DNA from: Lachnospiraceae bacterium | GTDB lineage: Bacteria; Bacillota; Clostridia; Lachnospirales; Lachnospiraceae | Length of the DNA stretch: 64,000 nt | Assembly: GCA_017614155.1 (NCBI GenBank) | Contig: JAGACK010000017.1 | Span: forward strand, 124,001-188,000 | Direction: 5' to 3' | Shown: piece by piece, positions 3,076 through 42,898 of the stretch | Layout of the letters: the number at the start of each line of letters is the position of its first letter | How positions within the stretch are numbered: position 1 is the first letter of the stretch | Notes under the pieces: generated by a model | Told to the model about the DNA's origin: nothing | Database searches by the model: none | What the model saw: only the letters and a program-made list of their open reading frames with translations | Made by a program: the position numbers and the translations under genes

Positions 3076-6000
3076 TCAGATCTGTTTTTTCAGGAGATTC
3101 TCAAATTCCTCCTGAGGAACAGGTTTTGAATAATAATAACCCTGAGCAATATCGCAGTGTACGGATTTGAGGAATTCCACCTGCTCAATATTCTCCACGC
3201 CCTCAGCAATGACCTTCATCCCGAGCTGTTTTGACATGGCAATGGAATTTGCTACGATGACTTTTCCTCTTTTTGTATCTATAACCTCATCAATAAAGAA
3301 CCTGTCAATCTTTATGACATCGACCGGCGCATCCTTGAGCATGTTCAGTGACGAATAACCCGATCCGAAATCATCCATTTCAATGACAAAACCGTTCTCC
3401 TTGAGTTTTCCCATCGTCTCATAGAGATTATCGGTATCCTCAACAAACATCGTTTCCGTGATCTCAAGCTCAAGCATTTTGGGATCTATATCATACTTTT
3501 TCACGAGTCCCACAAGTTCGGAGATCAGATCCGTATTGCTGATATGAAGCCTTGAGATATTTACGGATATCGGTATATTGAAACCCTTTTCCTTGAGTTT
3601 CGAGAGATAGATCGCTGTCGTCTCCCACATGTATTCATCTATCTTTTTGATAAATCCGTTATTCTCAAACAGCGGCAGAAAATCTCCGGGCATGCGCAGT
3701 CCCTTTACCGGATGCTGCCAGCGCACCAGCGCTTCCGCTCCGCAGATGCGGTTTGTCTGAAGATCAACCTTCGGCTGGAGATACATGATGAACTCATGTC
3801 TGTCAAGAGCAACCTGCATCTCGCTCTCCATCTCGGCAAGCCTGATCTGCTGCAGCCTGATGCGGTCATCGTATACGGCAAAATTGGTAAGGGTATTTCC
3901 TTTTATCTCCTTCTTTGCCAGCCTCGCCCTGTCGCACATAAGTCTGACGGGTATATCCCTGTCAACAATCTTGTAGATACCGAACGAAAGAGTGGAGCCG
4001 CTCCTTGTCGCCGCATCAAAATGGAAAGCCATGCCAAGTTTTTCAATATAATCAAGAATATCCTGATCCTTTTCATATTCTATCAGGACGGAGAAATTAT
4101 CTGCCTGATATCTTCCTGCTATACCATCCCACGGCAGAGACTTTGTGATCTGCTTGCCCAGTTCCTTCAGACAGTTATTACCGACTTCAACACCAAATCT
4201 GTCGTTTATGAGCCTGAACCTGTTGATATCTATGGCTACCATGGCAAACTCACTCTTGTTCTTCAGGAATATCCTTTCCATGGTCTTTCTGTAGAAGGCT
4301 TCGGAGTTATACAGTCCGGTAATGGAGTCATAGTCGGCCCTGAACTCCAGCTCCGATTTGATCTCCATCTCGGTATTGACATCCTGTATGCAGCCGGTAA
4401 CCCTGGTCATACGGTTGTTGAGACCCTGCAGTGTCTGGACCGTGATCGTAAAATAAAGCGCAACATCATATTTGTTGACAAGTCTCAGGGTTATCTCATG
4501 AGTATCAGGTTCTCTTTTCACCCTTGAGACAAAATCGTCAAATTTTTCCCTGTCATCCACATACGGGGTCAGGCTTTCAAGCAATGACCACTCGTCTTTC
4601 ATGGCATTTTCGGGTATCCTGAACATCTTATCAAAGGTAGTGCTGATATAGTATTTTGCCTGAGGGACATCATATTCAAATACAAATATCCCTGTCAGTT
4701 CGTTGACATGTTCGCTTCTTTCAAAATTCTGCGCAAGCTCATTCTGGGTCTCGTTCAGATCTTTTACCTGCTCATATTTTTTACCTGTAACAAAATCCTT
4801 GACAATATCCTGACTTAAGTCATTTATATCCCTCGCTGTCAGGAAGACCCTGTCATCTTCAAAGAATGTATTGAAAGAATACCAGTGATACGTCCCGTCC
4901 TGGTACAAAAGACGCACCTTGGTCTCAACCGTATCCCTCCCGATCTTTGCTGCCTCCCTTAAGTAGGCCGGTGAAGAAGCATTCAGGAAATCCTCCCTGT
5001 CATCCTGATAGACCACATAATCATGGAAATACCTGCGAAGGTTCTCATAATTGTCTACCCTTCTTTCCGTCATTGCCAGGACATTGACCTCGCGTATCCT
5101 GGTACATGAGTTTCTCAGGAGATCTATATCCCATACTATGTCCTGAGTCTTCAGCATGGCCTTGTTAAAGTTCTCCATGCTCTCTGACAGCTGGCTCATA
5201 TGCTTGGTAATATCCTCGCGGCTTTCAGCGATTATATACACCCTGATATTGTTCCTCATGACCAGCTTTGTGGTTCTGCAATGAACTATCCTTCTAAGCC
5301 CGGGAGAATAAACATCCGAATCCACCGATGAATTGTCCCTGTCAAATCTTTTCAGGGGACAGTCGACACACTGCTGCTTCGCGCCCTTAATCAGATCATA
5401 GCAGTATCCGATGCACTCACCCGGTATCCTTTCATTCAATGCCTCGTTCTTGTATATCAGATGCAGCCTTTCATCCACTGCATATGCCCAGGTGTGGATA
5501 GGGTTCAGTATCGTCTTTACCAGTTCGATATCATGAAGGGAGATATTTCTGCCTACGAATTCCTCTTCCTTTTTGATGGTATTGGTAAAGAACATGTATG
5601 TGTTCTTCCTGCTGTCCCTTGCTGCAACCAAAGCCTTTGAAGCCTTGTCATATATCTCCGCGATATTGAGGCTTTCATCATGCGGAACAGTACTCATTCC
5701 TATGGCTACAGACTGGGCAAGAGCCTCCTCGCTGTAAACACCCCATGTTATCTTTAATGTGGAGATCATCAGGACTGCCTTGTCACAGAGTATCTTGTCA
5801 TCCTTTATGCCGTTTAAGGATGCCAGATATATACCGTTGCCAACATAAGCGATCAGATCGGAATCCCTGAGAGTCCCTCTGATGATCTCTTCGGATTCCG
5901 AAAGAGCTTTCGCGGCTTTCTCTTTGTTCATCAGCTCCAGAGTACGGTAATAGGACAGTTCGATGAGCATGAGATTTGCCACATCATAAAGCGGCATCTC

Positions 6001-6390
6001 ATCAAGCCTCTGACGAAGCACCGAAAAAAAGGTCATCCTGTCGGTCACTTCACCGAAAGCACTTTCAGCATTATCCTCTATCCTGGTAACAGTGCCTGAA
6101 ACAAAATCATCCCTTCCGGGATTCTGGGGAACAAAAACCTGAAACCATGGATACTCACCGTTTACATCCATCATACGTATGAAACAGCACGCATCATGAT
6201 CAAGACCTTCAAGATTTGAAAAAAACTCAATCGCCCGTTTGCAATCATCGGAATAGACCCGTGCCCCAAGCTCAATATTGCCGACGAAGGGCTTTATGGT
6301 TGAAAATCCAGGCAGGATATCCTTTATATCGGATGTCGCTGTAAACCGGTCTTCCTGCATATAATAGCGAAAATCAAAGCTTGTCATCAT
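3076..6390 (-). CDS. Multidomain GGDEF-EAL protein, probable cyclic-di-GMP phosphodiesterase
   Basis: An 1104-residue soluble protein. Order of parts: an N-terminal unassigned region, a GGDEF-like domain with no intact motif (about 125-270), three PAS-like regions (about 285-680; the first contains a CVDC cysteine pair), a second GGDEF-like domain (about 690-835) where GGDEF has become YQADNF, and an EAL domain (about 850-1100). The EAL domain keeps the expected metal and catalytic motifs: EALVRW, VNIS, ELEITET, DDFGSGYSSL, VIKIDR and AEGVEN. I infer that it degrades cyclic di-GMP and does not make it, and that the GGDEF-like domains may bind GTP or only transmit signals. The start (ATGATG) follows a GGGGG site. 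A promoter lies just upstream. Confidence 0.9.
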   Translation of the reverse strand: MMTSFDFRYYMQEDRFTATSDIKDILPGFSTIKPFVGNIELGARVYSDDCKRAIEFFSNLEGLDHDACCFIRMMDVNGEYPWFQVFVPQNPGRDDFVSGTVTRIEDNAESAFGEVTDRMTFFSVLRQRLDEMPLYDVANLMLIELSYYRTLELMNKEKAAKALSESEEIIRGTLRDSDLIAYVGNGIYLASLNGIKDDKILCDKAVLMISTLKITWGVYSEEALAQSVAIGMSTVPHDESLNIAEIYDKASKALVAARDSRKNTYMFFTNTIKKEEEFVGRNISLHDIELVKTILNPIHTWAYAVDERLHLIYKNEALNERIPGECIGYCYDLIKGAKQQCVDCPLKRFDRDNSSVDSDVYSPGLRRIVHCRTTKLVMRNNIRVYIIAESREDITKHMSQLSESMENFNKAMLKTQDIVWDIDLLRNSCTRIREVNVLAMTERRVDNYENLRRYFHDYVVYQDDREDFLNASSPAYLREAAKIGRDTVETKVRLLYQDGTYHWYSFNTFFEDDRVFLTARDINDLSQDIVKDFVTGKKYEQVKDLNETQNELAQNFERSEHVNELTGIFVFEYDVPQAKYYISTTFDKMFRIPENAMKDEWSLLESLTPYVDDREKFDDFVSRVKREPDTHEITLRLVNKYDVALYFTITVQTLQGLNNRMTRVTGCIQDVNTEMEIKSELEFRADYDSITGLYNSEAFYRKTMERIFLKNKSEFAMVAIDINRFRLINDRFGVEVGNNCLKELGKQITKSLPWDGIAGRYQADNFSVLIEYEKDQDILDYIEKLGMAFHFDAATRSGSTLSFGIYKIVDRDIPVRLMCDRARLAKKEIKGNTLTNFAVYDDRIRLQQIRLAEMESEMQVALDRHEFIMYLQPKVDLQTNRICGAEALVRWQHPVKGLRMPGDFLPLFENNGFIKKIDEYMWETTAIYLSKLKEKGFNIPISVNISRLHISNTDLISELVGLVKKYDIDPKMLELEITETMFVEDTDNLYETMGKLKENGFVIEMDDFGSGYSSLNMLKDAPVDVIKIDRFFIDEVIDTKRGKVIVANSIAMSKQLGMKVIAEGVENIEQVEFLKSVHCDIAQGYYYSKPVPQEEFENLLKKQI

Positions 6391-12800: not shown

Positions 12801-13393
12801 TCCTTGTCGGAAACGACAGAGCCCTCGACCATGTACCATCTGTACGGGCTTTCAGAATCCCTCCTTACCCTGACGGCAAAGTTTTCCTTTGTATTTCCGT
12901 TCTTGAAATCAACTACCTTCTGGATATCCTCGTGAAAAACATAATCACCGTTCAGGACAATACTCTCCAGGGTTCCCGTAAACCTTGACATGTCTCCCGC
13001 TTTAGTGCTCTCGTCCCCATAGTTTCCGAAACATGACAAAGCCCCGTTCGAATACTCATATTCAAAGATGATATCTTTGGAATTCTCAAAAGCAAGCCTG
13101 TATCTTTCTTCCTCGGTCGCAAGTTCCAGGAAAAGATCATACTCCTTTTGGTTCTGTCTGTTCAGATAAAAGACCATAACGAAAAGTGCAGGCAGGAAAC
13201 TGATCAGTACAGCCACTATAAGTATCAGGATAAGGTCCTTTGCAGAAGCGGACAGGATGCCGGAAAAATACAGAACACCCACCACCAGGACCGACGCAAG
13301 GAACCACAGGCTCATTATAACGAAGAGCCGCTTTGAAACAGTCCCTGTCTTATTTTCGTTCCTGAACTTTTTTAAGTTATCGCCCATTATCAA
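9878..13393 (-). CDS. Membrane hybrid sensor histidine kinase with receiver and Hpt domains
   Basis: A 1171-residue phosphorelay protein. Two membrane helices lie near 23-44 and 53-75. They are followed by a PAS-like region (about 95-215), a GGDEF-fold region without a GGDEF motif (about 225-345) and a GAF-like region (about 370-535). The kinase part has MSHEIRTPMN with the phospho-His near 556, an ATPase domain (NNAVKF, DTGIGI, GTGLGLAI) to about 775, and a receiver with DDN near 811 and phospho-Asp near 856. An Hpt domain follows (VHGLKSAA, His near 1027), then about 70 acidic residues. It should autophosphorylate and relay internally; the final response regulator is not in the window. It overlaps the DUF4317 gene by 4 bp. 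Its stop codon lies within the rpsT promoter. Confidence 0.93.
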   Translation of the reverse strand: MIMGDNLKKFRNENKTGTVSKRLFVIMSLWFLASVLVVGVLYFSGILSASAKDLILILIVAVLISFLPALFVMVFYLNRQNQKEYDLFLELATEEERYRLAFENSKDIIFEYEYSNGALSCFGNYGDESTKAGDMSRFTGTLESIVLNGDYVFHEDIQKVVDFKNGNTKENFAVRVRRDSESPYRWYMVEGSVVSDKEKPVRLVGKLRDIDREKQQEKEFLENSKKDEATGFYTWDVGTKIIESKLEATKKTVMFMFFKILNMDSMDEDYGTIFADALIVHVANVLKSSTRDEDTLIRINRSAFVAVLPEISSDGMMMMHTGIERQLEHMYTGADNTGGLDYIIRFFDKKADLEKTVDSELSSNDPGLNRVVGIRYDTVSFAFNILEHTRDINSAMGMLLEYIGSQFNITAIHVLEKEEMPGVESCLYEWKTGPVSFGVHPGERRETDAVDMEHIYSLFANQDFVILDRHALINLSDKTRGRYLRNHTSHLLVAMLSGGECVGVIDYEHLNPEYLWPEETSATLNEVTRVISTYILKNKSDNASRAKSDFLSSMSHEIRTPMNAISGFSELILAEKDLNDNARKYANDIKASSESLISIINDILDFSKIEAGKFEIIDGNYRLSTLLNDVYSIIGVRIGEKGIALDVLMEGKIPDGLIGDESRVKQVFLNILNNAVKFTNRGSITLTISWESTAEDSGFLHASVKDTGIGIREEDLERIFESFSQVDTVRNKSIKGTGLGLAICKNLVGLMGGKISAVSTYGQGSTFSFSFRQRVYDESACEFDPNNLKREERKAFTVPFTAPDARVLVVDDNKVNLEVAKGLLRQYGLHVYAADSGEEALNMIFREEPFDIIFMDHMMPKMDGIETTGHIRHREMDKNVPIIALTANAIKGADKLFLDAGMNDYISKPIDLRVLASVMERWIPEEKKIRNTVPEKKEEPEKKIEKSDVSSQKPAPPAYYEETGEIRNEGIYSVLRGIDAATGLANCLGDEDTYCGLLETFIDSDSYNEANRFYLDNDIDNYKITVHGLKSAANYIGAAKLSAYSKMLEMYAKDKDERSIDRDHPGLKPLYEEVESSIKEFLKTNGSNAEEETQKTEIGRDGLLEHVEELIRMIEDMDLDAVSHKAEEMAGLEYEDPEVNGLIGEIVKDALNFDFEEAGQKAENIKSLLTQ

Positions 13394-14559
13394 TCATCCT
13401 CAAAACCAACAGTCCGGCAGCTTATCCCGTTCACTTCCACTCTGTCATTTACCGCTATGACTATGCACTGCCTTCCGTCAATCACTCTGGTACTAATCAG
13501 ATCTGTTCTTTCGGGATTGACCCTTATGACCACATCAGGTGTCTTGATATCAAATTTCTTTGTCCCGGTTATGTTTGCAGCCCTGATCCTGGTATCCTCC
13601 GCATCCGCTTCTTCGTCTTCGAGTGTTTCCCTGACTGCGACCTCGTATTTGTTTACAAAGTCCTTCATATCTTCATCCCGGACTCCGCTTTTTTCAAATA
13701 GTTTCTTTACATCATCCCTGCCAAACGAAAGCGGCTCCTGTGGATCATCATACTGCCTGAGCATCACGGAAACATTTTCATGTATATCCTTTACAGTTTC
13801 AAAAGAGACATCATCGCCAAGTGTCTTTGTGATGACACTGTTAAACACCTCGGCCTGTTCATCGGCCGATACCGGCATCTTCAGCCCGAAGATCCCTTCC
13901 GTAAAGCTTTCCATCAGGTCATCGCTTTTTTTACTGTAATACAGAAGACCATGGATATCAGCTGCTCTGTCGGAAAAAAGCGGGAACATGAATGCTTTTT
14001 CCGGATCAGCCACTACCCAGTCCCTCGCTCGTTCTCCTATCCTCTTTTCATCAGGTATATAACCGAGCGCAGCTTTTGTCAGCCTGACGGGACAAATGCT
14101 GCACATAATATAATCAAAGACGGTTTCTGAAGCATCATCCGTCATTATCTGATCCGTACCGATCTGGGGAACATCATATGATGCATGGACAAGGACTATA
14201 TAATATTTTTCAACGGTGTCATAGCTTTCGATGACACGGTCAAAAAAAGTTCCGACAAGTTCCTCATCCTTCAGGGCGCTCTTTCTGAGTTCCTGTAACA
14301 GTTTATGACTGCTCCCTTCAGTCTCATCCGAAGTCTCAAAAAACATATGAAGAAGGTTTTTGCCTTCTGTCCCTGAAAGTGATTTCTTCAGTATGTCAAA
14401 ATATTTGTGCATCTCTTCATCCGGCAGGGCCAGGAAGCTGTCGGTTGATACGCACATCTTTTCCTTCTCATTGTTCACATAGCATCCGCAGATACGGTCT
14501 ATGGTGCACCCGTCGATGGTGAACTGTTTTTTGATCTCGTTTATCTCGCTCTTTGTCAT
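13390..14559 (-). CDS. DUF4317-family protein of unknown function
   Basis: A 389-residue cytoplasmic protein. The start (MTKSEINEIKKQFT, then CTIDRICGCYVN) and the mid-region with paired cysteines (MCSICPVR near 183) match what I know of the DUF4317 family, found mainly in Lachnospiraceae and relatives. No membrane segment, signal peptide or catalytic motif is apparent; the C-terminus (VIAVNDRVEVNGISCRTVGF) could be a small beta domain. The function is unknown. It shares ATGA with the downstream hybrid kinase, which suggests joint translation and perhaps a role in the same signalling pathway. It is transcribed divergently from the DUF1846 gene across a 118-bp region. Confidence 0.8.
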   Translation of the reverse strand: MTKSEINEIKKQFTIDGCTIDRICGCYVNNEKEKMCVSTDSFLALPDEEMHKYFDILKKSLSGTEGKNLLHMFFETSDETEGSSHKLLQELRKSALKDEELVGTFFDRVIESYDTVEKYYIVLVHASYDVPQIGTDQIMTDDASETVFDYIMCSICPVRLTKAALGYIPDEKRIGERARDWVVADPEKAFMFPLFSDRAADIHGLLYYSKKSDDLMESFTEGIFGLKMPVSADEQAEVFNSVITKTLGDDVSFETVKDIHENVSVMLRQYDDPQEPLSFGRDDVKKLFEKSGVRDEDMKDFVNKYEVAVRETLEDEEADAEDTRIRAANITGTKKFDIKTPDVVIRVNPERTDLISTRVIDGRQCIVIAVNDRVEVNGISCRTVGFEDD

Positions 14560-19590: not shown

Positions 19591-20796
19591 TCATCCCTCA
19601 TCCTTTTCATACCCGGAAACTATGCCTATGATCTCCGATGCGTAATTAGGATATTTTTTTACCAGTTCATTGACCTCATCCTTGGCCATGTTCCTGTTCC
19701 CGTCATTGTATTCTATCCTTTTTCTCAGTGAACCGCGCCTTGCGACCAGATCGTGGCGAAGTTCAACCATTTCCCGTCTGTCAACTATCGCATATGCCTG
19801 ATGCGACCAGATGGTAGGATACTTCAGCTTGATGCTCTTTAATGCGTTCATGAAGTTATCCATTGCATCCCTGAGATCCCCGCCGGCTTCATCAAGCATC
19901 CTTCTCTCATCTCTTTCCTCCTGGTACAGTTCCCAGAAATACTCCAGCTCATCCGCCGAATTAACATGATACTTCCTGTACTGGTACTGCAGAAGGTTCT
20001 CCACATTCACATATCTTATCTTTACTGTATTCTGCTTTGCGATTATCTGATTCAGGAAATTCGACGCCTTCCTCATCTCCGTTCTGGCGCCGATATATTC
20101 GACAAAGATCAGTGTCATTGCTACAGCCGCCGCAAATGATGCAATCACGCATCCAAGCACGACATCCATCTGATACATATAACGGAGGACAAGGAGCATC
20201 AGTATGATAAAGCTTAAGGAGCATATGGTTATCATCACGAAATTCCTGCAGCTGATCTGCTTTACTGCCATTTCCTTTTTCTGGAAAGCGTATGCGCCCT
20301 TCTCTCCTTCAAGTTTCTGCAGATCGCCTCTTACCAGGAATTTGTAATCCTCATTCTTTTTCATCTCCTCTAAGGCCTTCGGCATATCCGGGGCTATGGC
20401 TTCCATATCCTCAAATCTGTCGTTGCTTATCCTTCCGATCTTTTCAGAATGAGTCTCATTTACCTTTTCAAGTCTCATGACCTCTTCCGCGGCATGCTTT
20501 AAAGGCCCGTATTTTTCCCGCGGAAGCTTGTCGATGATCTCCATGTCATTCAGATAGTCAGTGACCAGACGGTACTCCCTTGTAGCTGCGTCTATCTCCC
20601 GTGTGGATTCAAGCATCTGGTCGCAGCAGTTCCTGACATATCTCTCCCTCATCAGGGGATTTGAAATATCTATCTCATTTCTGTCAGGAACCTCTATCTT
20701 TGCAATATCCTCGCCGTCAAAAAGATCGTCTTCCTCAAATCCTGCTTCTATACTGTATTTAGCAAAAAAATCTCCGATTTTTCTAAATAAACCCAT
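19591..20796 (-). CDS. Unrecognised coiled-coil protein with two membrane helices
   Basis: A 401-residue protein I do not recognise. An acidic N-terminus (about 20-40) is followed by charged helical sequence likely to form coiled coils (about 50-185). A two-helix hairpin lies near 186-206 and 211-234, and a second charged helical half follows (about 235-400). The short link between the helices suggests both soluble halves face the cytoplasm, giving a membrane-anchored scaffold. It is the last gene of the long operon that includes the TPR protein (1 bp upstream), the Hsp70-fold protein and the DUF5717-like protein, so I infer that it belongs to that system. The ribosome site before the ATG is weak, consistent with translational coupling. 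Confidence 0.8.
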   Translation of the reverse strand: MGLFRKIGDFFAKYSIEAGFEEDDLFDGEDIAKIEVPDRNEIDISNPLMRERYVRNCCDQMLESTREIDAATREYRLVTDYLNDMEIIDKLPREKYGPLKHAAEEVMRLEKVNETHSEKIGRISNDRFEDMEAIAPDMPKALEEMKKNEDYKFLVRGDLQKLEGEKGAYAFQKKEMAVKQISCRNFVMITICSLSFIILMLLVLRYMYQMDVVLGCVIASFAAAVAMTLIFVEYIGARTEMRKASNFLNQIIAKQNTVKIRYVNVENLLQYQYRKYHVNSADELEYFWELYQEERDERRMLDEAGGDLRDAMDNFMNALKSIKLKYPTIWSHQAYAIVDRREMVELRHDLVARRGSLRKRIEYNDGNRNMAKDEVNELVKKYPNYASEIIGIVSGYEKDEG

Positions 20797-20797
20797 A

Positions 20798-21595
20798 CTA
20801 AACTGTCCTGTATTCGTTCTTCAGTTTAAGGATCATCTCTTCCGCTTTTCTGACAAAGCCAACCCTGTCCCTGTACTGCAGATCCATCAGTTCGGACACC
20901 TCTTTTTCAGCCTGCTGTCCGGCACTTTCAATTTCTTCCTTTGCCAGTTCAAAGATCTCCGGATCAGGATCGGTCTTCAGTACCTCGCTTTCAAACTCTT
21001 CCTTTGAAACACCCAGCTTCAGCGCCTTCAAATACCTTTTCAGAGCAGTCCCGTCCTCTGTAAGTTCCCACTCCTTTTTGAAAAAGGCAGCGCTTTCCCT
21101 GAACAGGTAGGATCCGGCATAGATCATGGCAAGGTTATGATAAACAGGCGCCAGCCTTTTGTCTTCGCCGTCGCTTTCAGCAATCGCTGCGCTGTACTCC
21201 TCCGCAGCGGCAACATTGTTCCTGTTCTGAAAAAAGAAATCCCCTCGTGACTTTCTCCTGATAAAAGGCCTGACATCGGTATTTCCCTCTATGATCCGTC
21301 TGATGCCCTCAAGTTCTTCCTCGTTCACATAGTGTCCATAAGCCAGTATCGCGCAGACATGATCCGATAATCCCTTGTCCTTCCTGTATAGATCTTTCAG
21401 CTGTTCATAAAGGTCGTTTAATCCCAGTTCTTTTCCGATAAAATCAAACAGGCTTTCATTTATTATTGTTCTGTCAAGGATATATGCATTTCCCCTGATG
21501 AAATACATCAGTTCCTCAAATGAATAGATATTGAGGCACAGCTGTTCGATATAGAACGGATTGCCCGTAACTTTTCCCATGCACTCATAGGTCAT
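20798..21595 (-). CDS. Unrecognised small helical protein with TPR-like repeats
   Basis: A 265-residue cytoplasmic protein with no membrane segment. The stretch near 118-185 (GDFFFQNRNNVAAAEEYSAA, then LAPVYHNLAMIYAGSYLFRE) has the alternating pattern of tetratricopeptide repeats. The C-terminal third is charged and helical, with EEFESEVLKTDPDPE and EIESAGQQAEKEVSEL. Such proteins usually bind partner proteins; I cannot name the partner, though the Hsp70-fold protein encoded immediately upstream is an obvious candidate. The start overlaps that gene by 4 bp (ATGA), with AGGGAGAAG before it. Confidence 0.8.
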   Translation of the reverse strand: MTYECMGKVTGNPFYIEQLCLNIYSFEELMYFIRGNAYILDRTIINESLFDFIGKELGLNDLYEQLKDLYRKDKGLSDHVCAILAYGHYVNEEELEGIRRIIEGNTDVRPFIRRKSRGDFFFQNRNNVAAAEEYSAAIAESDGEDKRLAPVYHNLAMIYAGSYLFRESAAFFKKEWELTEDGTALKRYLKALKLGVSKEEFESEVLKTDPDPEIFELAKEEIESAGQQAEKEVSELMDLQYRDRVGFVRKAEEMILKLKNEYRTV

Positions 21596-22821
21596 GAGGC
21601 TTCTCCCTTCACATCCTCGATATTTATGGTCTGTGTGATCTCGTTGCCCGTAGCAGGAAAGATCTCTCCAAACCCCAGATCGGTCACCGTCACCTTCAGT
21701 TCCGACACGGAAAGCATCTCAAACCTCAAAGAAACCCTTGAGGCTCTCTCAGGCCTTTCCGGAATGCCGTTCGTTCTTATCACCACGCACCTGTCGCCGT
21801 CTCCGCTTATCGGAGTAAGCGTGATCCTGATCTCCCTTTCCCTGCCAAGCATAACCTCTATATCGGATGATGCCTCAAACCAGTTGATGCCGGCATCAAT
21901 CAGGGATCTGTATCTGATCTGTCCATCCGTGCAAAGGTCCATTCCGATATTTACCTTGAGCTTGTCCCTGTCAAGAAATATCTCTCCGCTTTCAAGCTTT
22001 TTGATGCCGGATACATCCATTGCGGCATAGCAGGCGCCCTTAGTGTACAGGTTCATTCCCTGAAAGACCCTTCGTCCGTCATCACAGAGATATTTTACGG
22101 TCTCCTTTGCCCAGTCTCCGTCAAACCCCGTTCCCGCAAGATATACGCTTGAGATAACCTCGCTGTCCATTACTTCCCTGCAGATCCGCAGCAGATCAAT
22201 GTCATTTTTCTCAGGCAGCTCGAACTGTCTCTCATCTATGAATGTGACATTCGGCTTCATGTTCCTGTTGGTTGAGAGCATGCCGGTCCTAACGGACTTT
22301 CCGTCATAATCGATAAGGCATACCTTGTTGAACCTCAATTCTTCAGCCTGGCTGGCGGAATAATAAAAATAGCTCTCGGCATGACTTAAAAACCTGATAT
22401 CGACATCATTGAGTTCCAAAAGCTCAACGGCCCTTCTGACTGTTTTCAATACCTTCGAATCAAGCCGCCTTAAGGTAATGAAGAGCATGGGCTTTGCCGG
22501 CCATTCGCTCCTGAAGGTAACACCCTTCAGGGCATGCCTTATAAATCCCGAAAGAACAGGGATCTTTGATTCATCCCCGACAGCAAGTTCTATGAGATCT
22601 TCATATACTGTCCCAAAGCCTTCCGGGGCCCTTTTGGCATCCTCCCCGAACATCCACTCGTCCTTATCATTTACTTTCATCGCCACAGTCGGGATGCAGT
22701 ACTTCTGGGCCCCCATAAGCACGGGCCTGGTCACCACCTCAAATCCTCCGCTGTCGTCGGGGGACAGAAGGCTTATCTGGGTAACATCATCACAAAGATC
22801 CAATCCTGCAACAGTTCTCAT
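21592..22821 (-). CDS. Hsp70/actin-fold protein (DUF5716-like), function unknown
   Basis: A 409-residue protein that looks like a divergent nucleotide-binding ASKHA protein. TVAGLDLCDDVTQISLLS at the N-terminus resembles phosphate-1, KVCLIDYDGKSVRTGML near 193 resembles phosphate-2, and VYLAGTGFDGDWAKE near 248 the adenosine motif. The C-terminal part is beta-rich (about 320-400), as in a substrate-binding domain. I associate it with the Lachnospiraceae family DUF5716, from memory. I chose the ATG at 22821, which has GGAGAT 5 nt upstream; a TTG at 22857 lies inside the preceding hairpin. It follows the DUF5717-like gene across that hairpin and overlaps the TPR gene by 4 bp. The ATPase fold is inferred, not proven. 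Confidence 0.72.
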   Translation of the reverse strand: MRTVAGLDLCDDVTQISLLSPDDSGGFEVVTRPVLMGAQKYCIPTVAMKVNDKDEWMFGEDAKRAPEGFGTVYEDLIELAVGDESKIPVLSGFIRHALKGVTFRSEWPAKPMLFITLRRLDSKVLKTVRRAVELLELNDVDIRFLSHAESYFYYSASQAEELRFNKVCLIDYDGKSVRTGMLSTNRNMKPNVTFIDERQFELPEKNDIDLLRICREVMDSEVISSVYLAGTGFDGDWAKETVKYLCDDGRRVFQGMNLYTKGACYAAMDVSGIKKLESGEIFLDRDKLKVNIGMDLCTDGQIRYRSLIDAGINWFEASSDIEVMLGREREIRITLTPISGDGDRCVVIRTNGIPERPERASRVSLRFEMLSVSELKVTVTDLGFGEIFPATGNEITQTINIEDVKGEAS

Positions 22822-22842
22822 CTGTATCTCCAATAAAATCTC

Positions 22843-22870
22843 AAAAGCACGGTGCAATGCACCGTCTTTT
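22843..22870 (-). terminator. Terminator-like hairpin between the DUF5717-like and Hsp70-fold genes
   Basis: The arms ACGGTGCA and TGCACCGT pair perfectly around one base, flanked by AAAAG on one side and CTTTT on the other. The hairpin followed by TTTT resembles a rho-independent terminator in either direction. Inside an operon it could lower expression of the downstream genes or protect an mRNA end. Confidence 0.65.
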
Positions 22871-22879
22871 TAATCTCTG

Positions 22880-25800
22880 TCAAAAATCTTTAATGATCGC
22901 CCTTTTTTTCAGATAATCCGAAAGCGCGTCCTCCATGCTCTCATAATCCTCAAGCATGTTGCACAGAATTACTTCATTCAAAAGGCAGTAGCGGAGCGTC
23001 TTGTCCGCGCTCTCATCAGGCTCTATCTCTATCACGCCGCTCTGTGTCAGGTTCTCGCTTCCGCCCGACTCCTCAGTGATATAATACTGAAGTCTCTCAC
23101 CCCTGAACATTACAAATCTCTTTGAAAAGATACCGCCGTAGACATTGCTCATCTCTTCCTTGACATAGCTGACCCGGTCATCATTGCCGTCATTTAAAAG
23201 ATAATGCAGCACCACCCTGTTCTTTGGATTCGATCTGTATTCCACAAACGACAGATCCTCATACAGCCTCAGTTCCTCAACAAAAGGCGCATACTCTGAA
23301 AAGAACCCAAAGACCATATTCTTTTCAAGCATCTTTCGAACGCATTCACAAAGGATCTTCAGCGTCCTTTCATCCTTTTCCCTTTCCCTGTAGTATCTGA
23401 TGAGTGCAAGCATGCACACATCATTGGGCTCATCATCCTCATAAAGCCTCAACAGTTCCGGGAATATCCTCTTGTCCGGGATCCTCTCTTTTACAAAGTA
23501 ATCATAGGCATTATATGACAGATACGCATAGACGATCGGACCGCGCGCGCCGCGTTTGACATAATCAAAGAAAATATCATCCTTTTCTCCGATAAAGCTC
23601 CCTGTCCTCAGCATCTGAAGAATTATCTTCTCCTCGATCATTCTGACATCAAGCTCAAAATCCTCTCCTGCTCTCCAGATCCTTCTTAAGTTTTTTGTAG
23701 TGCCCTCAAAACAGTCAATCAGGTAGGATAGGATCTGCTCGTTGTATTTTCCTTCGTTAAACACATAATAAGCCATATAGATCAGGTCATCAGGCGCCTG
23801 GGATCCCCCCTGTGTAAGGAACAGCGAAAGGAGTCTTACCATGGTCTTTGCATCGGTCCCCGAGATGCCGAATTCATTTATTACCTGACATGCCCTGAAA
23901 GTCATGTCTCTGAGAACCATGAACCTTACCACCTGGCTCCTGTCTTCCATGTCCAGAGCACTGATATCCGTCATATCTATGAGACTGTCCAGTTCGCGGA
24001 GCATGTCTTCATCAAAATAGTATCTGAACAGATCCATCCTGACTTCATTCTTGAAATCCTCATCCACTTCTTCCGATTCAAGACATCTTCTTACAAAAAC
24101 AACATTAAAGCTGTCCACGGCAAATGCATTCCGGCCTCGCAGGGAAAGATAGACATTCAGATATGTATCATCCTGTGACAGGGAATCGAGCACTCTTACG
24201 GCAGTTGCGGTATGGAGAAGCGGTATCTCTTCATATCCGCTCTCAATCCGCGAATATCTCCTGCCTCTGTCATCTTCAAAAAAGATCTCATAATCGTTGC
24301 CGCAGATCTTCACATAGGCCAGCCCGTCTTTTAACACACACCGTTTTTCTTTCTTCAGCTGTCTTTCGATAACAACGACCGCCTTTATGCTCCTGTCCCT
24401 GCATTTGATAAGCCGTGTAAATGCGACATCGGCAAGGGCAGTATCTACAGCAAAACGCTGTTTCATGACTCCGAACTCACTTCCCTTGAAATAATCAAGG
24501 TAATCATATATGACTGCAAGATTCTCATCAATATGTCCCGCATAAATCTCATTTACGGCAAAATCGGACAGTCTCATCCTGCACTCTTCAAGCAGCTCAG
24601 GCACCTCGGCTTCATGAACTATCATATTTGCAAAGACATATGCGGTTAGTGTCGGAGGCAGATTGCTCTGAAGGCCAAAATAAAGAAGCACATGTTTGGG
24701 CAGCAGAGCCGTATGATTCTCCGGAAGCGTATACAGATAATACTCATACAGATTTGTAATCCGCAGTTCTCTTTCGATAGCTTTTGAATAGAATTCCCCG
24801 TATTCCTTTCCCGTCTTTTCGTTCCTGATCAGGTATGAGCATATGGCAGTCAGCACATCATCATCATCAAATTCATTGAAATACTCTGAAAGCACCACAA
24901 ACAGCAGCGGATAGAATCTCCTGCACCTTGACACCAGCTGAATCACTCTTTCTTCCAAAGCTTTATTGAACAGTCCCTTCTTTATTGCATAATAAAGAAC
25001 CCGTATTTCAATATTTTCCAGCTTTGTCAGAAGAGACGGCTCTTTTGAAAACAGGACATACGCTTCTATCAAAAGCAGCGGACTGGCGGAATTTCTTTCA
25101 AACTGCCTGACAAGCAGCTCTTTTTCCCTTTCGGGAGATCTTTTTACGGTCTCATCAAGATATATGAGTATCCAGAGCAGAAAATCCCTGTCCCTGTGTC
25201 CTTCATATAATGCCCATACAGTCTTTATGGCATCCTCCACATCCGTATCATCTTTTGCATTCATTGCTTTCAGATATATCAGATAGCCTTTCAGGTCGAC
25301 AGGAAATCCTGCCGTTTCAAATTCAGCTTCAATCTTGTCGATAAGTATCCCGGCTTCCCTGTCTCTTTTTGATACGATGAGACTGTGCGCCTGGTAGAGT
25401 CTTACAAGCGGATCCTCCATATCTATATAGAGCATCCTGTCGATAAGTTCTTTTGATTCATTTATCCACGCATTGGCCGAGATATCCTTTATCCTGAAAC
25501 GCACATAGCATTCAGTGAGCTCAGCCCTCAGTTTTTTCTTTCTGTGATCCGTATCAAGAGCTGTCCTGTCAAACGGCCTGAAGTTCACAAAGACCGGAAG
25601 TGTTATATCGGAATGCGAAGAAACCAGCCTGATCGAGGCATAATTTATGCCTCTGTGAAGCCTTTCTGTTCTGACGGTGTATCCGACATCAACCGAGCTT
25701 CCCGTGAAATCATGAGAGAAGAATTCATTTTTCGAAAGCTCAAGGAAATCAGAATCCGATTCCAGCTGGATATGAGTATAGCCCCAGCCTGACCTTCTGA

Positions 25801-26452
25801 TCGTAAAGGTTCCGGTATCCTCCTCCATCATATCCGTTACAGTAATATTCTCCCTGTCAAAACTGTATACGACAGGAGTCTTTTTGTTCACGCTTATCAG
25901 AAATTCCTCAACATTTTCAAGGGACATATCCTTTGCAGAAAATGCTCTGTATTTGAGCATATGTGATCTTTCAGTGTTTTTGAATATTTCCCTGAATTCT
26001 TTTGTATAAAAGACCTTTGCCGCCTCATCAAAATCAGAGCGGGCAAGATTTGTAAAATGGAAAAGATTCTTTATCGGCCCCGCAGAAGATTCGATATATT
26101 TCCTGATAACCTCTATGACAACGCTTATCTGGGCTTCCCCGGCGTCGGAGATGACATATATGTCTCCCTTGAAAACAAAACCGCTGTCCAGGCCCTTTGT
26201 CGAAACACTGTAAAGCACTTCCAGGCCCTCATTAAGGGGGCCTTCATATTCATTCACAGAAACTCTGATACGCGGATCCGATGTAAGGATGGAAAGCTTA
26301 ACTTTCTTATTATCCCTGCAGCTTATGACGAAGCTTCCGTCCCTGTCCTCCAAAGGAGCGACATCGGCTTCTATCTTTCTTTCGGATACCGTTATCTTTT
26401 CTGTTTCGTATTCAAAATGACCTTTGATAAGGTTTTCGATATACTTTTCCAT
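22880..26452 (-). CDS. Very large DUF5717-like protein of unknown function
   Basis: A 1190-residue soluble protein, start MEKYIENLIKGHFEYETEKI, matching my memory of the Lachnospiraceae family DUF5717. Residues about 15-330 look beta-rich, with two Ig-like or sandwich modules (FVISCRDNKKVKLSILTSD; FTIRRSGWGYTHIQLES). From about 335 the sequence is helical and repeat-like (alpha solenoid), with phrases such as SPLLLIEAYVLF and LYEYYLYTLPENHTALL, until a C-terminal beta-rich portion. No catalytic motif is visible. It overlaps the aminotransferase stop by 1 bp if the ATG at 26452 is used; a GTG at 26455 is the alternative. It precedes the Hsp70-fold gene, so I infer a shared complex. Confidence 0.8.
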   Translation of the reverse strand: MEKYIENLIKGHFEYETEKITVSERKIEADVAPLEDRDGSFVISCRDNKKVKLSILTSDPRIRVSVNEYEGPLNEGLEVLYSVSTKGLDSGFVFKGDIYVISDAGEAQISVVIEVIRKYIESSAGPIKNLFHFTNLARSDFDEAAKVFYTKEFREIFKNTERSHMLKYRAFSAKDMSLENVEEFLISVNKKTPVVYSFDRENITVTDMMEEDTGTFTIRRSGWGYTHIQLESDSDFLELSKNEFFSHDFTGSSVDVGYTVRTERLHRGINYASIRLVSSHSDITLPVFVNFRPFDRTALDTDHRKKKLRAELTECYVRFRIKDISANAWINESKELIDRMLYIDMEDPLVRLYQAHSLIVSKRDREAGILIDKIEAEFETAGFPVDLKGYLIYLKAMNAKDDTDVEDAIKTVWALYEGHRDRDFLLWILIYLDETVKRSPEREKELLVRQFERNSASPLLLIEAYVLFSKEPSLLTKLENIEIRVLYYAIKKGLFNKALEERVIQLVSRCRRFYPLLFVVLSEYFNEFDDDDVLTAICSYLIRNEKTGKEYGEFYSKAIERELRITNLYEYYLYTLPENHTALLPKHVLLYFGLQSNLPPTLTAYVFANMIVHEAEVPELLEECRMRLSDFAVNEIYAGHIDENLAVIYDYLDYFKGSEFGVMKQRFAVDTALADVAFTRLIKCRDRSIKAVVVIERQLKKEKRCVLKDGLAYVKICGNDYEIFFEDDRGRRYSRIESGYEEIPLLHTATAVRVLDSLSQDDTYLNVYLSLRGRNAFAVDSFNVVFVRRCLESEEVDEDFKNEVRMDLFRYYFDEDMLRELDSLIDMTDISALDMEDRSQVVRFMVLRDMTFRACQVINEFGISGTDAKTMVRLLSLFLTQGGSQAPDDLIYMAYYVFNEGKYNEQILSYLIDCFEGTTKNLRRIWRAGEDFELDVRMIEEKIILQMLRTGSFIGEKDDIFFDYVKRGARGPIVYAYLSYNAYDYFVKERIPDKRIFPELLRLYEDDEPNDVCMLALIRYYREREKDERTLKILCECVRKMLEKNMVFGFFSEYAPFVEELRLYEDLSFVEYRSNPKNRVVLHYLLNDGNDDRVSYVKEEMSNVYGGIFSKRFVMFRGERLQYYITEESGGSENLTQSGVIEIEPDESADKTLRYCLLNEVILCNMLEDYESMEDALSDYLKKRAIIKDF

Positions 26453-40734: not shown

Positions 40735-42894
40735 TCAGTCCTCCTCTTTCTTATTTTCTCTTGCCGCAAACCTGTCAGCGACTTCAGTGACTTCTTTTTC
40801 ACACTTGAGGAAAGCATCGGCGACCAAAGGATCAAAGTGTGTGCCTGCCTCCTCTTTTATTATGTTCATGGCCTTCTCGTATGAGAACGAGTCCTTGTAG
40901 CAGCGCTTTGAGACAAGGGCATCAAATACATCCGCTACAGCCATGATACGCGCCGACAGCGGTATATCCTCTCCTGCAAGTCCTTCGGGATATCCGGAAC
41001 CGTCCCACTTTTCATGATGGTAGCCGGCAACATTCTTTGCTTCCTCCATATAGTCAGCTTCCGGCATTGCCGCAATGACCTGTTCTATGACATTCTTTCC
41101 GGCGGTAGTGTGTTCCTTCATGAGCTCAAATTCCATGTCGTTGAGCCTTCCGGGCTTATTCAGGATAACATCGGAGACAGAGATCTTTCCGATATCGTGA
41201 AGCGGAGCCGAACGAATACAGTCGCGTATGAACCTGTCTGTCATCAGATCCTTGTAATAACCGAGTTCCTTCATCTTGCGTGCCGTGATCCCGACATAGG
41301 CCGCTGTCTTTCTGACATGGTCTCCGGTACCTTCGTCACGGTTTTCCACCATATCGGCAAGGACAAGGATCAGGCTGTTCTGCATAGCCTCGATCTTTTC
41401 CATCTTCTCGTTGTTTTCTTCAAAGAACCTGGTGCTTTCCTCAGTAGTCTTGAGAAATGCCCTGTACAGCCTTTCTATTTCATCATCCGTACTGATATCC
41501 AGCTGTGAAAGAATCTCCACATTGTTCTTCCTTGCAAATTCATCCTCATATTCAAACCTGCCGGCAGCATAGGACATGGCATTGATGGGCAAAACCAGAT
41601 GATATCTTGCAAACCACGATGCTACGGCAAACAGAAGCATGATAAAACCGGCAAATATCATTATCGCCTTGAACACAAATTCCGACTCATATGTACGAAG
41701 ACCCGACATATCGATGTCCACTCCGGCATAACATACGCAGCTTCCGCTCGAATCATAAATGGGCTCATAATAGGTCAGCAGCCAGCCATAGGTATCCCTT
41801 GATACCACGGGATCGATCCTTTTGCCCGCAAGAAGACTCGGCAGATATACCATGAAGGATTCATCAAACGGGATCACTTCTCCGGGTTCCGCGCCTGCCA
41901 GTCCTTCCGTATCGACATCAAATACCACATGGCATCCGTCTGACATGATCTTGTAAACATATACATATTTGACATCCTGACTGTTCTTGTAGAGATTTAC
42001 CAGCTGTTTTTCTGTCTCCTCATATCCCTCGGCCGCGCTCCCCATGTCAATAAAATCATTTACCCTGTCTCCGTCAACTATATCGGATGCCATCTTTGCA
42101 ACGCCTTGCGCAAGATATGAATGCTGTTCGGTGGAATAGTTCCTGAAAAGCATCATGCACACACTCGTACATATAGTCGCAATTGTAACTGAAAAGACAA
42201 CGAGCACCGTCATGAGCTTTGCATTGAGTGTCCATCTGCCTTTGGCTTTTTCTCCGCTCTTTTTCTCCTTCGGTATCGTTATGGGTTCCTGTTTCCATCC
42301 AACAAATTCAAACCTGGACCAGAGTCTCCTGGGGATGAGATAAAGAAGGATCCTGACAATTATCACTGTCACGGCTTTATCGAGCAGATCGAATACATAA
42401 TTGCTCGCAAACCACGATGGGAATTCACCGAGACCAAGATTGTAAAGGAAACTTACCAGGCCCGTGCTGAAAACACTTTGGTCGATGAAATGCAGATACC
42501 ATGTTATGATACCGCCCAGACCGCCTCCTATAAGACCAAGCACGAAAATGTAAAGGATCATGAACCGGATTTTTTTCAGATATCCCTTTTTGGAAAAAAA
42601 TACAGTTATAACGGCTATCAGAACGCTTACAGGCGCATAATAGATCGAAACCCCGTCGGAAAAATTATTAATTATTGTTGAGATAAGCGCAACAGCTATA
42701 CCGGGAACATATCCTCCCAGAAAAGCGACAAGCACCGTCCCGACCGTATCAAGATAGAGCATCAGCCCGGTCGCCTCAACAACGACTCTCCCTCCGATAT
42801 TCAGTACCAGTCCCACGAGGATCATCATCAGCGGCAGAAGCAGCTGTCTCCGCCTGCTTCCCGTTATCACCTCTTTGTATTCGGGATTATTCAT
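40735..42894 (-). CDS. Membrane HD-GYP cyclic-di-GMP phosphodiesterase with an ECF-like sensory domain
   Basis: A 719-residue protein. Residues about 15-195 form five or six helices resembling the substrate-binding (S) component of ECF transporters (LNIGGRVVV, then YLDTVGTVLVAFLGG). Then come a helix near 235, an extracytoplasmic sensor region (about 260-400), a helix (about 410-430), a HAMP-like linker and a complete HD-GYP domain: DHVRKTA, LHDIGKI near 565 and HHEKWDGSGYP near 629. All catalytic motifs are present, so it should hydrolyse cyclic di-GMP. I chose the ATG at 42894, preceded by AAGGAAAA; an ATG at 42918 lies within the end of the kinase gene and has no clear site. Confidence 0.9.
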   Translation of the reverse strand: MNNPEYKEVITGSRRRQLLLPLMMILVGLVLNIGGRVVVEATGLMLYLDTVGTVLVAFLGGYVPGIAVALISTIINNFSDGVSIYYAPVSVLIAVITVFFSKKGYLKKIRFMILYIFVLGLIGGGLGGIITWYLHFIDQSVFSTGLVSFLYNLGLGEFPSWFASNYVFDLLDKAVTVIIVRILLYLIPRRLWSRFEFVGWKQEPITIPKEKKSGEKAKGRWTLNAKLMTVLVVFSVTIATICTSVCMMLFRNYSTEQHSYLAQGVAKMASDIVDGDRVNDFIDMGSAAEGYEETEKQLVNLYKNSQDVKYVYVYKIMSDGCHVVFDVDTEGLAGAEPGEVIPFDESFMVYLPSLLAGKRIDPVVSRDTYGWLLTYYEPIYDSSGSCVCYAGVDIDMSGLRTYESEFVFKAIMIFAGFIMLLFAVASWFARYHLVLPINAMSYAAGRFEYEDEFARKNNVEILSQLDISTDDEIERLYRAFLKTTEESTRFFEENNEKMEKIEAMQNSLILVLADMVENRDEGTGDHVRKTAAYVGITARKMKELGYYKDLMTDRFIRDCIRSAPLHDIGKISVSDVILNKPGRLNDMEFELMKEHTTAGKNVIEQVIAAMPEADYMEEAKNVAGYHHEKWDGSGYPEGLAGEDIPLSARIMAVADVFDALVSKRCYKDSFSYEKAMNIIKEEAGTHFDPLVADAFLKCEKEVTEVADRFAARENKKEED

Positions 42895-42898
42895 AAGA

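What the first reader, a model, noticed from the sequence alone, without database searches (positions are those of the whole stretch)
19591..26452. Possible undescribed Hsp70-fold module: DUF5717-like, ASKHA-like, TPR and coiled-coil membrane proteins
Four adjacent genes with overlaps or short gaps encode a 1190-residue beta/alpha-solenoid protein, an actin/Hsp70-fold protein, a TPR protein and a membrane scaffold. The combination of an ATPase-like fold, a TPR partner and a giant solenoid looks like a chaperone or assembly machine tied to the membrane. None has a known function that I can state.
Basis: inference. Interest (0 to 1): 0.75.

Follow-up and report, generated by a model that had tools for sequence, protein, structure and literature searches.

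The report
Relic of a four-Hsp70 chaperone operon
Four neighbouring genes of unknown function in a gut-type bacterium appear to be the shrunken remains of a larger chaperone operon with four Hsp70-type proteins, of which one that has lost its ATP-splitting residues is kept by nearly every sampled relative in the family.

Summary
The four genes are real: a minus-strand operon of DUF5717 (1190 aa), DUF5716 (409 aa), a TPR-family protein (265 aa) and a two-TM coiled-coil protein (401 aa). DUF5716 and DUF5717 are Pfam families without function, found in 247 and 248 of 250 sampled Lachnospiraceae genomes. In 47 distinct loci DUF5717-DUF5716-TPR are always adjacent; the membrane protein is recognisable in 24. 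The key finding lies outside the window: related families of the order carry a longer operon with an Ig-type protein, solenoid, Hsp70a, GrpE-domain protein, Hsp70b, Hsp70c, Hsp70d (vWA domain instead of the lid) and TPR. DUF5717 corresponds to the first two genes fused; DUF5716 to Hsp70b, by profile comparison, by proteins matching both families, and by tree. DUF5716 keeps the Hsp70 beta substrate domain but lacks catalytic residues (K70 0/47, E171 0/47), about half of the stretch holding subdomain IIB, and the lid. The operon's GrpE and active Hsp70s are missing from the 12 Lachnospiraceae genomes checked.

The parts
22880..26452 (-). DUF5717 protein, 1190 aa, no TM-like segment: fusion of an Ig-type N-terminal part and an alpha-solenoid
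   Evidence: DUF5717_N 790 bits, DUF5717 303 bits; corresponds to two separate adjacent genes in most other families; TM count 0
25517..26452 (-). N-terminal part of DUF5717 (about residues 1-312; boundary approximate), equal to the separate IgN gene of other families; beta/Ig type is an inference
   Evidence: L229 IgN matches DUF5717_N positions 13-304, L150 IgN 1-289; one weak BACON_2 match, E 0.0025, below cut-off
22883..25516 (-). solenoid part of DUF5717 (about residues 313-1190), equal to the separate Sol gene
   Evidence: L229 Sol matches DUF5717_N 323-851 and DUF5717 2-296; alignment A5
21592..22821 (-). DUF5716 protein, 409 aa: degenerate Hsp70 (Hsp70b descendant), no lid
   Evidence: DUF5716_C 290.5 bits; hhalign to Hsp70b E 8.6e-57, to DnaK E 3e-7; tree; residues
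21646..21915 (-). SBD-beta-like part of DUF5716 (about residues 303-392; boundaries approximate)
   Evidence: alignment with DnaK and Hsp70b/c
20798..21595 (-). TPR-family protein, 265 aa, with a conserved N-terminal region of no Pfam family
   Evidence: TPR matches in most members of the alignment; orthologs in sister operons
19591..20796 (-). MP: coiled-coil protein, 401 aa, two TM-like segments (about 20185-20241 and 20107-20163)
   Evidence: ortholog in L150 (226 bits) and in f89 loci L234, L235, L236, L241
26452..27549 (-). flank, not part of the module: CobD/HisC-like aminotransferase; a similar gene lies near the operon in part of the other families
   Evidence: Aminotran_1_2; TIGR01140 277.2 bits against cut-off 290.55; similar gene in 26 of 47 family f1 loci and 10 of 36 other loci

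Best explanation
The module is the Lachnospiraceae descendant of a dedicated multi-Hsp70 chaperone operon. SHOWN by sequence: the longer form in related families is Ig-type protein, solenoid, Hsp70a, GrpE-domain protein, Hsp70b, Hsp70c, Hsp70d-vWA and TPR, with a coiled-coil membrane protein first or last in part of the loci. In Lachnospiraceae the first two are fused (DUF5717), Hsp70b alone survives of the four (DUF5716), and TPR and often a membrane protein remain. Hsp70b is the one paralog that already lacks the catalytic lysine and threonine; the active Hsp70s and the operon's GrpE are absent together. That the long form is the ancestral one is inferred from the tree, the shared flanks and the DUF5717 fusion. 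INFERRED: DUF5716 no longer cycles on ATP but works as a constitutive binding platform: its SBD-beta or stiffened NBD holds a peptide or a partner (solenoid or TPR protein), and the membrane protein, where present, tethers the complex to the inner face of the membrane. The complex would hold, stage or assemble a client at the membrane; in the long form Hsp70a/c/d with the GrpE protein would add ATP-driven remodelling. Homology and reduction: about 0.95. Scaffold/holdase mechanism: about 0.45.
For: hhalign: DUF5716 to Hsp70b 100%, E 8.6e-57; Hsp70b to DnaK 99.6%, E 4.1e-24; DUF5716 to DnaK 93%, E 3.1e-7; control MP to DnaK 0.1%. Proteins over both Pfam cut-offs: L229 Hsp70b (DUF5716_C 116, HSP70 53 bits), L229 Hsp70c (47.7 and 215), L193 Hsp70b (88.6 and 27). 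PDB profile search: all six hits at E<0.01 are DnaK, the best with a weak second stretch over SBD-beta. Tree: 17 DUF5716 rows nested in Hsp70b, nearest the Hsp70b of f77, then of f89 (100/100, 100/99). Residues: K70, E171 and T199 equivalents 62 of 62 in Hsp70a/c/d; K70 0 of 20 in Hsp70b and 0 of 47 in DUF5716. GrpE over cut-off: 10 of 10 long-form genomes have a second one at the operon; 12 of 12 Lachnospiraceae have exactly one; 2 of 2 f75 genomes one. Retention in 247 of 250 and 248 of 250 genomes. Shared flanks.
Against: No structure was predicted: fold, the IIB loss and any interaction rest on sequence alone. Nothing shows binding among the four proteins. MP is missing or unrecognisable in 23 of 47 loci, so membrane tethering by it cannot be general. 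Some nucleotide-site residues remain: P1 aspartate 39 of 47, first adenosine-loop glycine 47 of 47, D194 equivalent 24 of 47. Single DUF5716 sequences barely show the Hsp70 link (HSP70 at E<=1 in 2 of 46, best 0.051). Hsp70b keeps E171 in 4 of 20, so it may not be uniformly dead. No client or phenotype is known.
Confidence: 0.6

Rival explanations
1. DUF5716 still binds nucleotide and works as an Hsp70-derived co-chaperone that feeds clients to the housekeeping DnaK/GrpE/DnaJ, with the TPR protein as adaptor.
For: P1 aspartate 39 of 47 and first adenosine-loop glycine 47 of 47 kept; the 12 Lachnospiraceae genomes checked keep DnaK, GrpE and a J-domain protein. Insignificant PDB hits (E 0.28-0.59) are entries titled 'Putative heat shock protein', which I recall as fungal Ssz1, a non-hydrolysing Hsp70.
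Against: T11 0, K70 0, E171 0, third P2 glycine 0, second adenosine-loop glycine 0 of 47; about half of the stretch between P2 and the adenosine loop gone.
Confidence: 0.2
2. A conflict (defence-like) system related to the GAP1-N2 GTPase systems, some of which carry HSP70, GrpE and an FNIII protein fused to TPR or DnaJ.
For: Similar parts list in Kaur et al. 2020 (section 29). Weak PADLOC matches of sister-operon proteins: Hsp70c and Hsp70d to PDC-M61B (40.4 and 28.1 bits), MCC to ZorA models and others (at most 20.7 bits), the GrpE protein to ZorA (15.4 bits).
Against: No GTPase match in the eight operon proteins of L229 scanned against Pfam; no PADLOC match for the four window proteins; single-copy, family-wide retention, unlike the patchy spread usual for defence genes (general knowledge).
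Confidence: 0.08
3. An actin-like (MreB/FtsA-type) filament or division/shape scaffold: the ASKHA protein polymerises at the membrane through MP.
For: ASKHA relationship; MreB_Mbl matches in Hsp70a, c and d; membrane partner in 24 of 47 loci.
Against: MreB matches are much weaker than HSP70 (64 against 309 bits in Hsp70d); SBD-beta is present, which MreB and FtsA lack (recalled); nucleotide site degenerate.
Confidence: 0.07
4. A decaying relic without function.
For: Loss of the active Hsp70s and GrpE; low identity among orthologs (mostly 20-37% to the window for DUF5716).
Against: Kept in 247-248 of 250 genomes as open frames; invariant residues across 46 DUF5716 proteins (G6, P44, G230, G262, A263, D381, G383, G385).
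Confidence: 0.05

Closest known systems
DnaK (Hsp70) with GrpE
   Same: DUF5716 shares the P1 region, adenosine-loop region and SBD-beta with DnaK; sister operons hold three Hsp70s with intact catalytic residues and a GrpE-domain protein over cut-off in four of four proteins tested.
   Different: DUF5716 lacks catalytic residues, about half of the P2-to-adenosine stretch and the lid. The sister operon has four paralogs, no J-domain match at the operon (10 of 10), the D393-equivalent linker aspartate in 0 of 62 Hsp70a/c/d, and a vWA domain in Hsp70d.
GAP1-N2 GTPase systems, HSP70-GrpE theme (Kaur et al. 2020, PMC7159879; passages and section 29 read)
   Same: HSP70 plus GrpE, sometimes a second HSP70 without peptide-binding domain, a beta-repeat (FNIII) protein with TPR or DnaJ, membrane elements, in firmicutes and actinobacteria.
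   Different: Those are built on a GTPase and GAP1; no GTPase was matched here. Here four Hsp70 paralogs, DUF5717-type Ig and solenoid proteins, single copy and family-wide.
Pfam DUF5716_C, DUF5717_N and DUF5717
   Same: Window proteins are full members.
   Different: The families carry no function; the link to Hsp70 and to the long operon was not found in the library searched.
Ssz1, a non-hydrolysing lid-less eukaryotic Hsp70 of the ribosome-associated complex (recalled)
   Same: Hsp70 relative used as a scaffold rather than an ATP-driven foldase.
   Different: Recalled analogy only; PDB hits that I recall as Ssz1 are insignificant (E 0.28-0.59).

Membership tests
Hsp70 superfamily (DUF5716 as descendant) | sequence homology over NBD and SBD-beta | tested here: met
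   hhalign; PDB profile; relatives over both cut-offs; tree
Hsp70 superfamily (DUF5716 as descendant) | ATPase residues K70, E171, T199 and GGGT loop | tested here: not met
   K70 0/47, E171 0/47, T199 2/47, third glycine 0/47; so it is not filed as a working Hsp70 ATPase
Hsp70 superfamily (DUF5716 as descendant) | alpha-helical lid after SBD-beta | tested here: not met
   15-27 residues after SBD-beta against 148-161 in DnaK
Hsp70 superfamily (DUF5716 as descendant) | three-dimensional Hsp70 fold | not testable with these tools
   structure prediction interrupted, then switched off
Hsp70 chaperone system (sister long operon) | ATPase-competent Hsp70 plus GrpE | tested here: met
   62 of 62 Hsp70a/c/d keep K70, E171, T199; GrpE over cut-off at the operon in 10 of 10 genomes
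Hsp70 chaperone system (sister long operon) | J-domain partner encoded with it | tested here: not met
   no PF00226 match at the operon in 10 of 10 genomes; every one of them has at least one elsewhere
GAP1-N2 GTPase conflict systems | GAP1 and TRAFAC GTPase genes | tested here: not met
   no such match in the eight L229 operon proteins; flanks of the other loci were not scanned
Anti-phage defence systems (PADLOC) | match to a defence model | tested here: not met
   0 families at E<=0.01 for the four window proteins; weak matches of some sister-operon proteins (at most 40.4 bits)
MreB/FtsA actin-like proteins | best match to the MreB/FtsA class, no SBD | tested here: not met
   PDB hits are DnaK; SBD-beta present

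The most novel reading that the evidence does not exclude
The order holds an undescribed chaperone machine with four division-of-labour Hsp70 paralogs (one catalytically dead, one ending in a vWA domain), a GrpE fusion, an Ig/solenoid pair and a TPR adaptor, without a J-protein gene of its own and linked to the membrane in part of the families. In Lachnospiraceae it was reduced to its dead Hsp70 plus the fused solenoid and TPR, which became a core, possibly essential, family-wide scaffold: an Hsp70 machine that shed its ATPases and kept its pseudo-enzyme.
Probability: 0.45. Interest if true: 0.8.

Novelty: new variant of a known kind. Interest (0 to 1): 0.64.

Why it matters
Two protein families without function, kept by nearly all sampled Lachnospiraceae genomes, gain an origin and a testable role. 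The longer operon offers a natural set of Hsp70 paralogs with diverged interdomain linkers and no J-domain gene beside them, and its reduction shows which part of an Hsp70 machine can be kept when ATP use is given up. Hsp70 relatives turned into scaffolds are few, as far as I recall.

Tried and rejected
I went on with profile-profile comparison, intermediate sequences, a tree and residue counts; no fold search was run. PDB searches with DUF5717 and MP gave nothing significant (best E 0.12 each); the TPR profile gave generic TPR proteins. MCC's weak ZorA matches cover later parts of the ZorA models, which I recall as the coiled-coil tail, so I claim no motor. The metal motif DxSxS was looked for after residue 440 of Hsp70d: 0 of 17 rows, three of which are cut short, so metal binding by that vWA is doubtful. 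Weak class-level matches G275 (21 bits, below cut-off) and G084 (20.9 bits) were set aside; G275's stretch (L153) scored E 1e-6 with my DUF5716 profile in a small database but holds no other module gene. Rows dropped: duplicate loci L093 and L116 (counts of 47); one of the 20 Hsp70b rows (L228) in alignment A8; two of seven DnaK rows (L132 is a wrong ORF, seen as a 6.04-long branch in the tree; L127 lacks the P1 motif near its start). L132 was left in the tree. My widened IgN profile drifted: it also scores solenoid ORFs (60 hits), so IgN and Sol labels rest on the better score, and f89 loci show one ORF of 931-1006 aa instead of two genes. Papers: DUF5716/DUF5717 (the one hit is irrelevant, passage read) and combinations of Hsp70, GrpE, TPR, vWA, Lachnospiraceae and signature-protein terms (listings seen). 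Of PMC7159879 I read passages and section 29.
Full report
OBSERVATION. The four ORFs stand on the minus strand at 26452-22880, 22821-21592, 21595-20798 and 20796-19591, with a 4-base overlap and a 1-base gap between the last three. Pfam calls the first DUF5717 (790 and 303 bits) and the second DUF5716_C (290.5 bits); the other two have no Pfam match over a cut-off, and no NCBIfam model reaches its cut-off for any of the four. Of 46 aligned members of the third, 36 match TPR_2 at E<=1. The fourth has two TM-like segments. Upstream lies a CobD/HisC-like aminotransferase, downstream purB and purA.

DISTRIBUTION. DUF5716_C is found in 247 of 250 and DUF5717_N in 248 of 250 genomes of the window's family f1 (249 genera); three of the 247 have two DUF5716 matches, the rest one. 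DUF5717_N often falls into two matches in one genome. In a class sample of 293 genomes 13 match DUF5716_C over the cut-off, all of them f1; one more (G275) matches below it. The name Lachnospiraceae for f1 rests on record titles of loci and on two contigs shared with f1 genomes (L019/L093, L026/L116). Linkage: in 49 loci over 10 kb (47 distinct) DUF5717, DUF5716 and TPR are adjacent on one strand in all; MP follows in 26 (24 distinct). The loci were taken by their DUF5716 match, many from the best-scoring rows.

THE LONGER OPERON. A search for HSP70 in relatives showed extra Hsp70-like genes in two other families of the order, f77 and f78; the f75 and f76 genomes of that sample had none beyond DnaK and matches of MreB size. 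Their neighbourhoods hold homologs of every window gene: in L150 (f77) DUF5717 corresponds to a 396-aa and an 885-aa gene, and the DUF5716 profile matches a 494-aa Hsp70-like protein at E 5.5e-105 (small database). A solenoid alignment then found 29 of 29 f78 genomes, 1 of 1 f77 and 103 of 216 in an order sample, with hits in eleven families (f1, f4, f77, f78, f79, f84, f85, f86, f89, f90, f91); of the 113 without a match only 20 are listed, among them members of f4, f84 and f89. In the class sample it found 13 f1 genomes and one weak match (G084) of 293.

ANATOMY OF THE LONGER OPERON. I mapped 36 loci outside f1. Where the genes are present their order is the same: [MCC] - IgN - Sol - Hsp70a - GrpE protein - Hsp70b - Hsp70c - Hsp70d - TPR - [MP]. 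Thirteen loci show Sol to TPR in full order: L150, L224, L228-L233, L235-L238 and L241 (in L150 Hsp70d and TPR are each broken into two ORFs; in L224 TPR is cut by the region end). L234 lacks recognisable Hsp70b and TPR; L240 lacks Hsp70d and TPR; eleven f78 loci show only IgN and Sol, ten of them with MCC, and no Hsp70 in the fetched stretch (in L204 the contig ends about 2 kb beyond); L151 shows only Hsp70c-d-TPR; the remaining nine stop within about 3 kb of a contig or region end. In f89 (L234-L236, L241) IgN is not a separate gene, and L230 has one fused ORF of 1326 aa, so fusion is not unique to Lachnospiraceae. MP was recognised in five of the 36 (L150 and four f89 loci). Pfam on the L229 operon: TPR; HSP70 309 plus VWA 40 bits in Hsp70d; HSP70 215 and DUF5716_C 47.7 in Hsp70c; DUF5716_C 116 and HSP70 53 in Hsp70b; GrpE 42.5; HSP70 263 in Hsp70a; DUF5717_N 323-851 plus DUF5717 in Sol; DUF5717_N 13-304 in IgN. 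GrpE is over its cut-off in the four proteins tested.

DUF5716 IS A DEGENERATE Hsp70b. A profile of 46 DUF5716 proteins finds DnaK in the PDB (best E 0.00027), with a weak second stretch over SBD-beta. hhalign: DUF5716-Hsp70b 100%, E 8.6e-57; Hsp70b-DnaK 99.6%, E 4.1e-24; DUF5716-DnaK 93%, E 3.1e-7; negative control MP-DnaK 0.1%. The Hsp70b alignment used 19 of 20 rows. Single members hide the link: 2 of 46 match HSP70 at E<=1, best 0.051, and L150 Hsp70b matches DUF5716_C (250 bits) without HSP70. A tree of 71 rows puts the 17 DUF5716 rows inside Hsp70b, next to the Hsp70b of f77 and then of f89 (100/100 and 100/99); one DnaK row (L132) is a wrong ORF, and many Hsp70b rows have an unlike letter make-up, so deep order is less sure.

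CATALYTIC STATE (E. coli residue numbers and the subdomain name are recalled). K70: Hsp70a 24/24, c 21/21, d 17/17, b 0/20, DUF5716 0/47. E171: 24/24, 21/21, 17/17, 4/20, 0/47. T199: 24/24, 21/21, 17/17, 0/20, 2/47. P1 aspartate: 62/62 in a, c, d; 19/20; 39/47. First adenosine-loop glycine 47/47 in DUF5716, second 0/47. Residues between P2 and the adenosine loop: DnaK 133-136, Hsp70b 125-145, DUF5716 52-71; the missing part lies where DnaK has subdomain IIB, which GrpE grips (recalled). After SBD-beta: DnaK 148-161 residues, DUF5716 15-27, so no lid. The linker aspartate D393, needed for J-protein coupling in DnaK (recalled), is 0 of 62 in Hsp70a/c/d.

LOSS, NOT MOVE. GrpE in 24 genomes: the 10 long-form genomes have a second match over cut-off at the operon (G584 a third elsewhere); 12 of 12 f1 genomes have exactly one over cut-off (G505, G518 and G326 have further ones below it); 2 of 2 f75 genomes one. 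HSP70: f1 genomes show DnaK plus matches in ORFs of MreB size; G479, G326 and G505 have one further Hsp70-type ORF elsewhere, whose class I did not test. J-domain: none at the operon in 10 of 10; G595, G600, G640 and G661 have a single one, beside dnaK. Flanks fit descent in place: a CobD-like gene lies upstream in 26 of 47 f1 loci and occurs in 10 of 36 other loci; valS lies downstream in 8 of 47 and occurs in 4 of 36; purB is downstream in 25 of 47 and in none of the 36 (positions in the 36 were not computed).

MECHANISM. Shown: homology, gene order, loss of catalytic residues, absence of the operon's GrpE and active Hsp70s in the f1 genomes checked, a two-TM protein in about half of the f1 loci. 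Inferred: a constitutive peptide- or partner-binding scaffold of solenoid, dead Hsp70 and TPR, tethered to the membrane by MP where present. That the paralog kept is the dead one, and that GrpE is gone with the active ones, fits a non-cycling role better than an ATP-driven one. Client, phenotype and binding are unknown.

KNOWN OR NEW. Searches for DUF5716, DUF5717 and combinations of Hsp70, GrpE, TPR, vWA and Lachnospiraceae terms in the held open-licence library found no description (listings). The nearest is the HSP70-GrpE theme of GAP1-N2 GTPase systems in Kaur et al. 2020 (PMC7159879, passages and section 29 read), which are built on a GTPase. Subscription papers and preprints were not searched. 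I rate it a new variant of the Hsp70 kind.

Noticed in passing
L191, L192, L194, L195, L197-L202, L204 (family f78): Only IgN and solenoid (with MCC in ten of eleven) in the fetched stretch, no Hsp70; in L194 a GGDEF-domain protein follows, and L191, L192 and L198 have a protein of similar start there. Possibly a second, independent reduction.
   Followed up: partly
L150:6205-7231 and L150:7340-9384: TPR and Hsp70d genes are each broken into two ORFs in the f77 genome (assembly error or decay).
   Followed up: no
G584:C37:7626-9964: A separate small cluster with a J-domain match, an Hsp70 (432 bits) and a GrpE match outside the operon.
   Followed up: no
L229:3790-5862 and the other Hsp70d: Hsp70 with a vWA domain in place of the lid (L229); no DxSxS metal motif after residue 440 in 17 of 17 rows, three of them cut short.
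   Followed up: partly
TPR protein, window 20801-21595, about residues 1-110: Conserved N-terminal region (consensus IYSIEELCYY...YLxD...WI..ELGL) without a Pfam family, present in the alignment of 46 members and in sister families.
   Followed up: no
window 42902-47809, minus: 1636-aa hybrid histidine kinase with Reg_prop propeller repeats and a receiver domain, next to an HD_5 protein at 40738-42918.
   Followed up: no
window 3079-6390, minus: 1104-aa GGDEF-EAL protein.
   Followed up: no
window 13393-14559, minus: DUF4317 protein (447.7 bits), another family without function.
   Followed up: no
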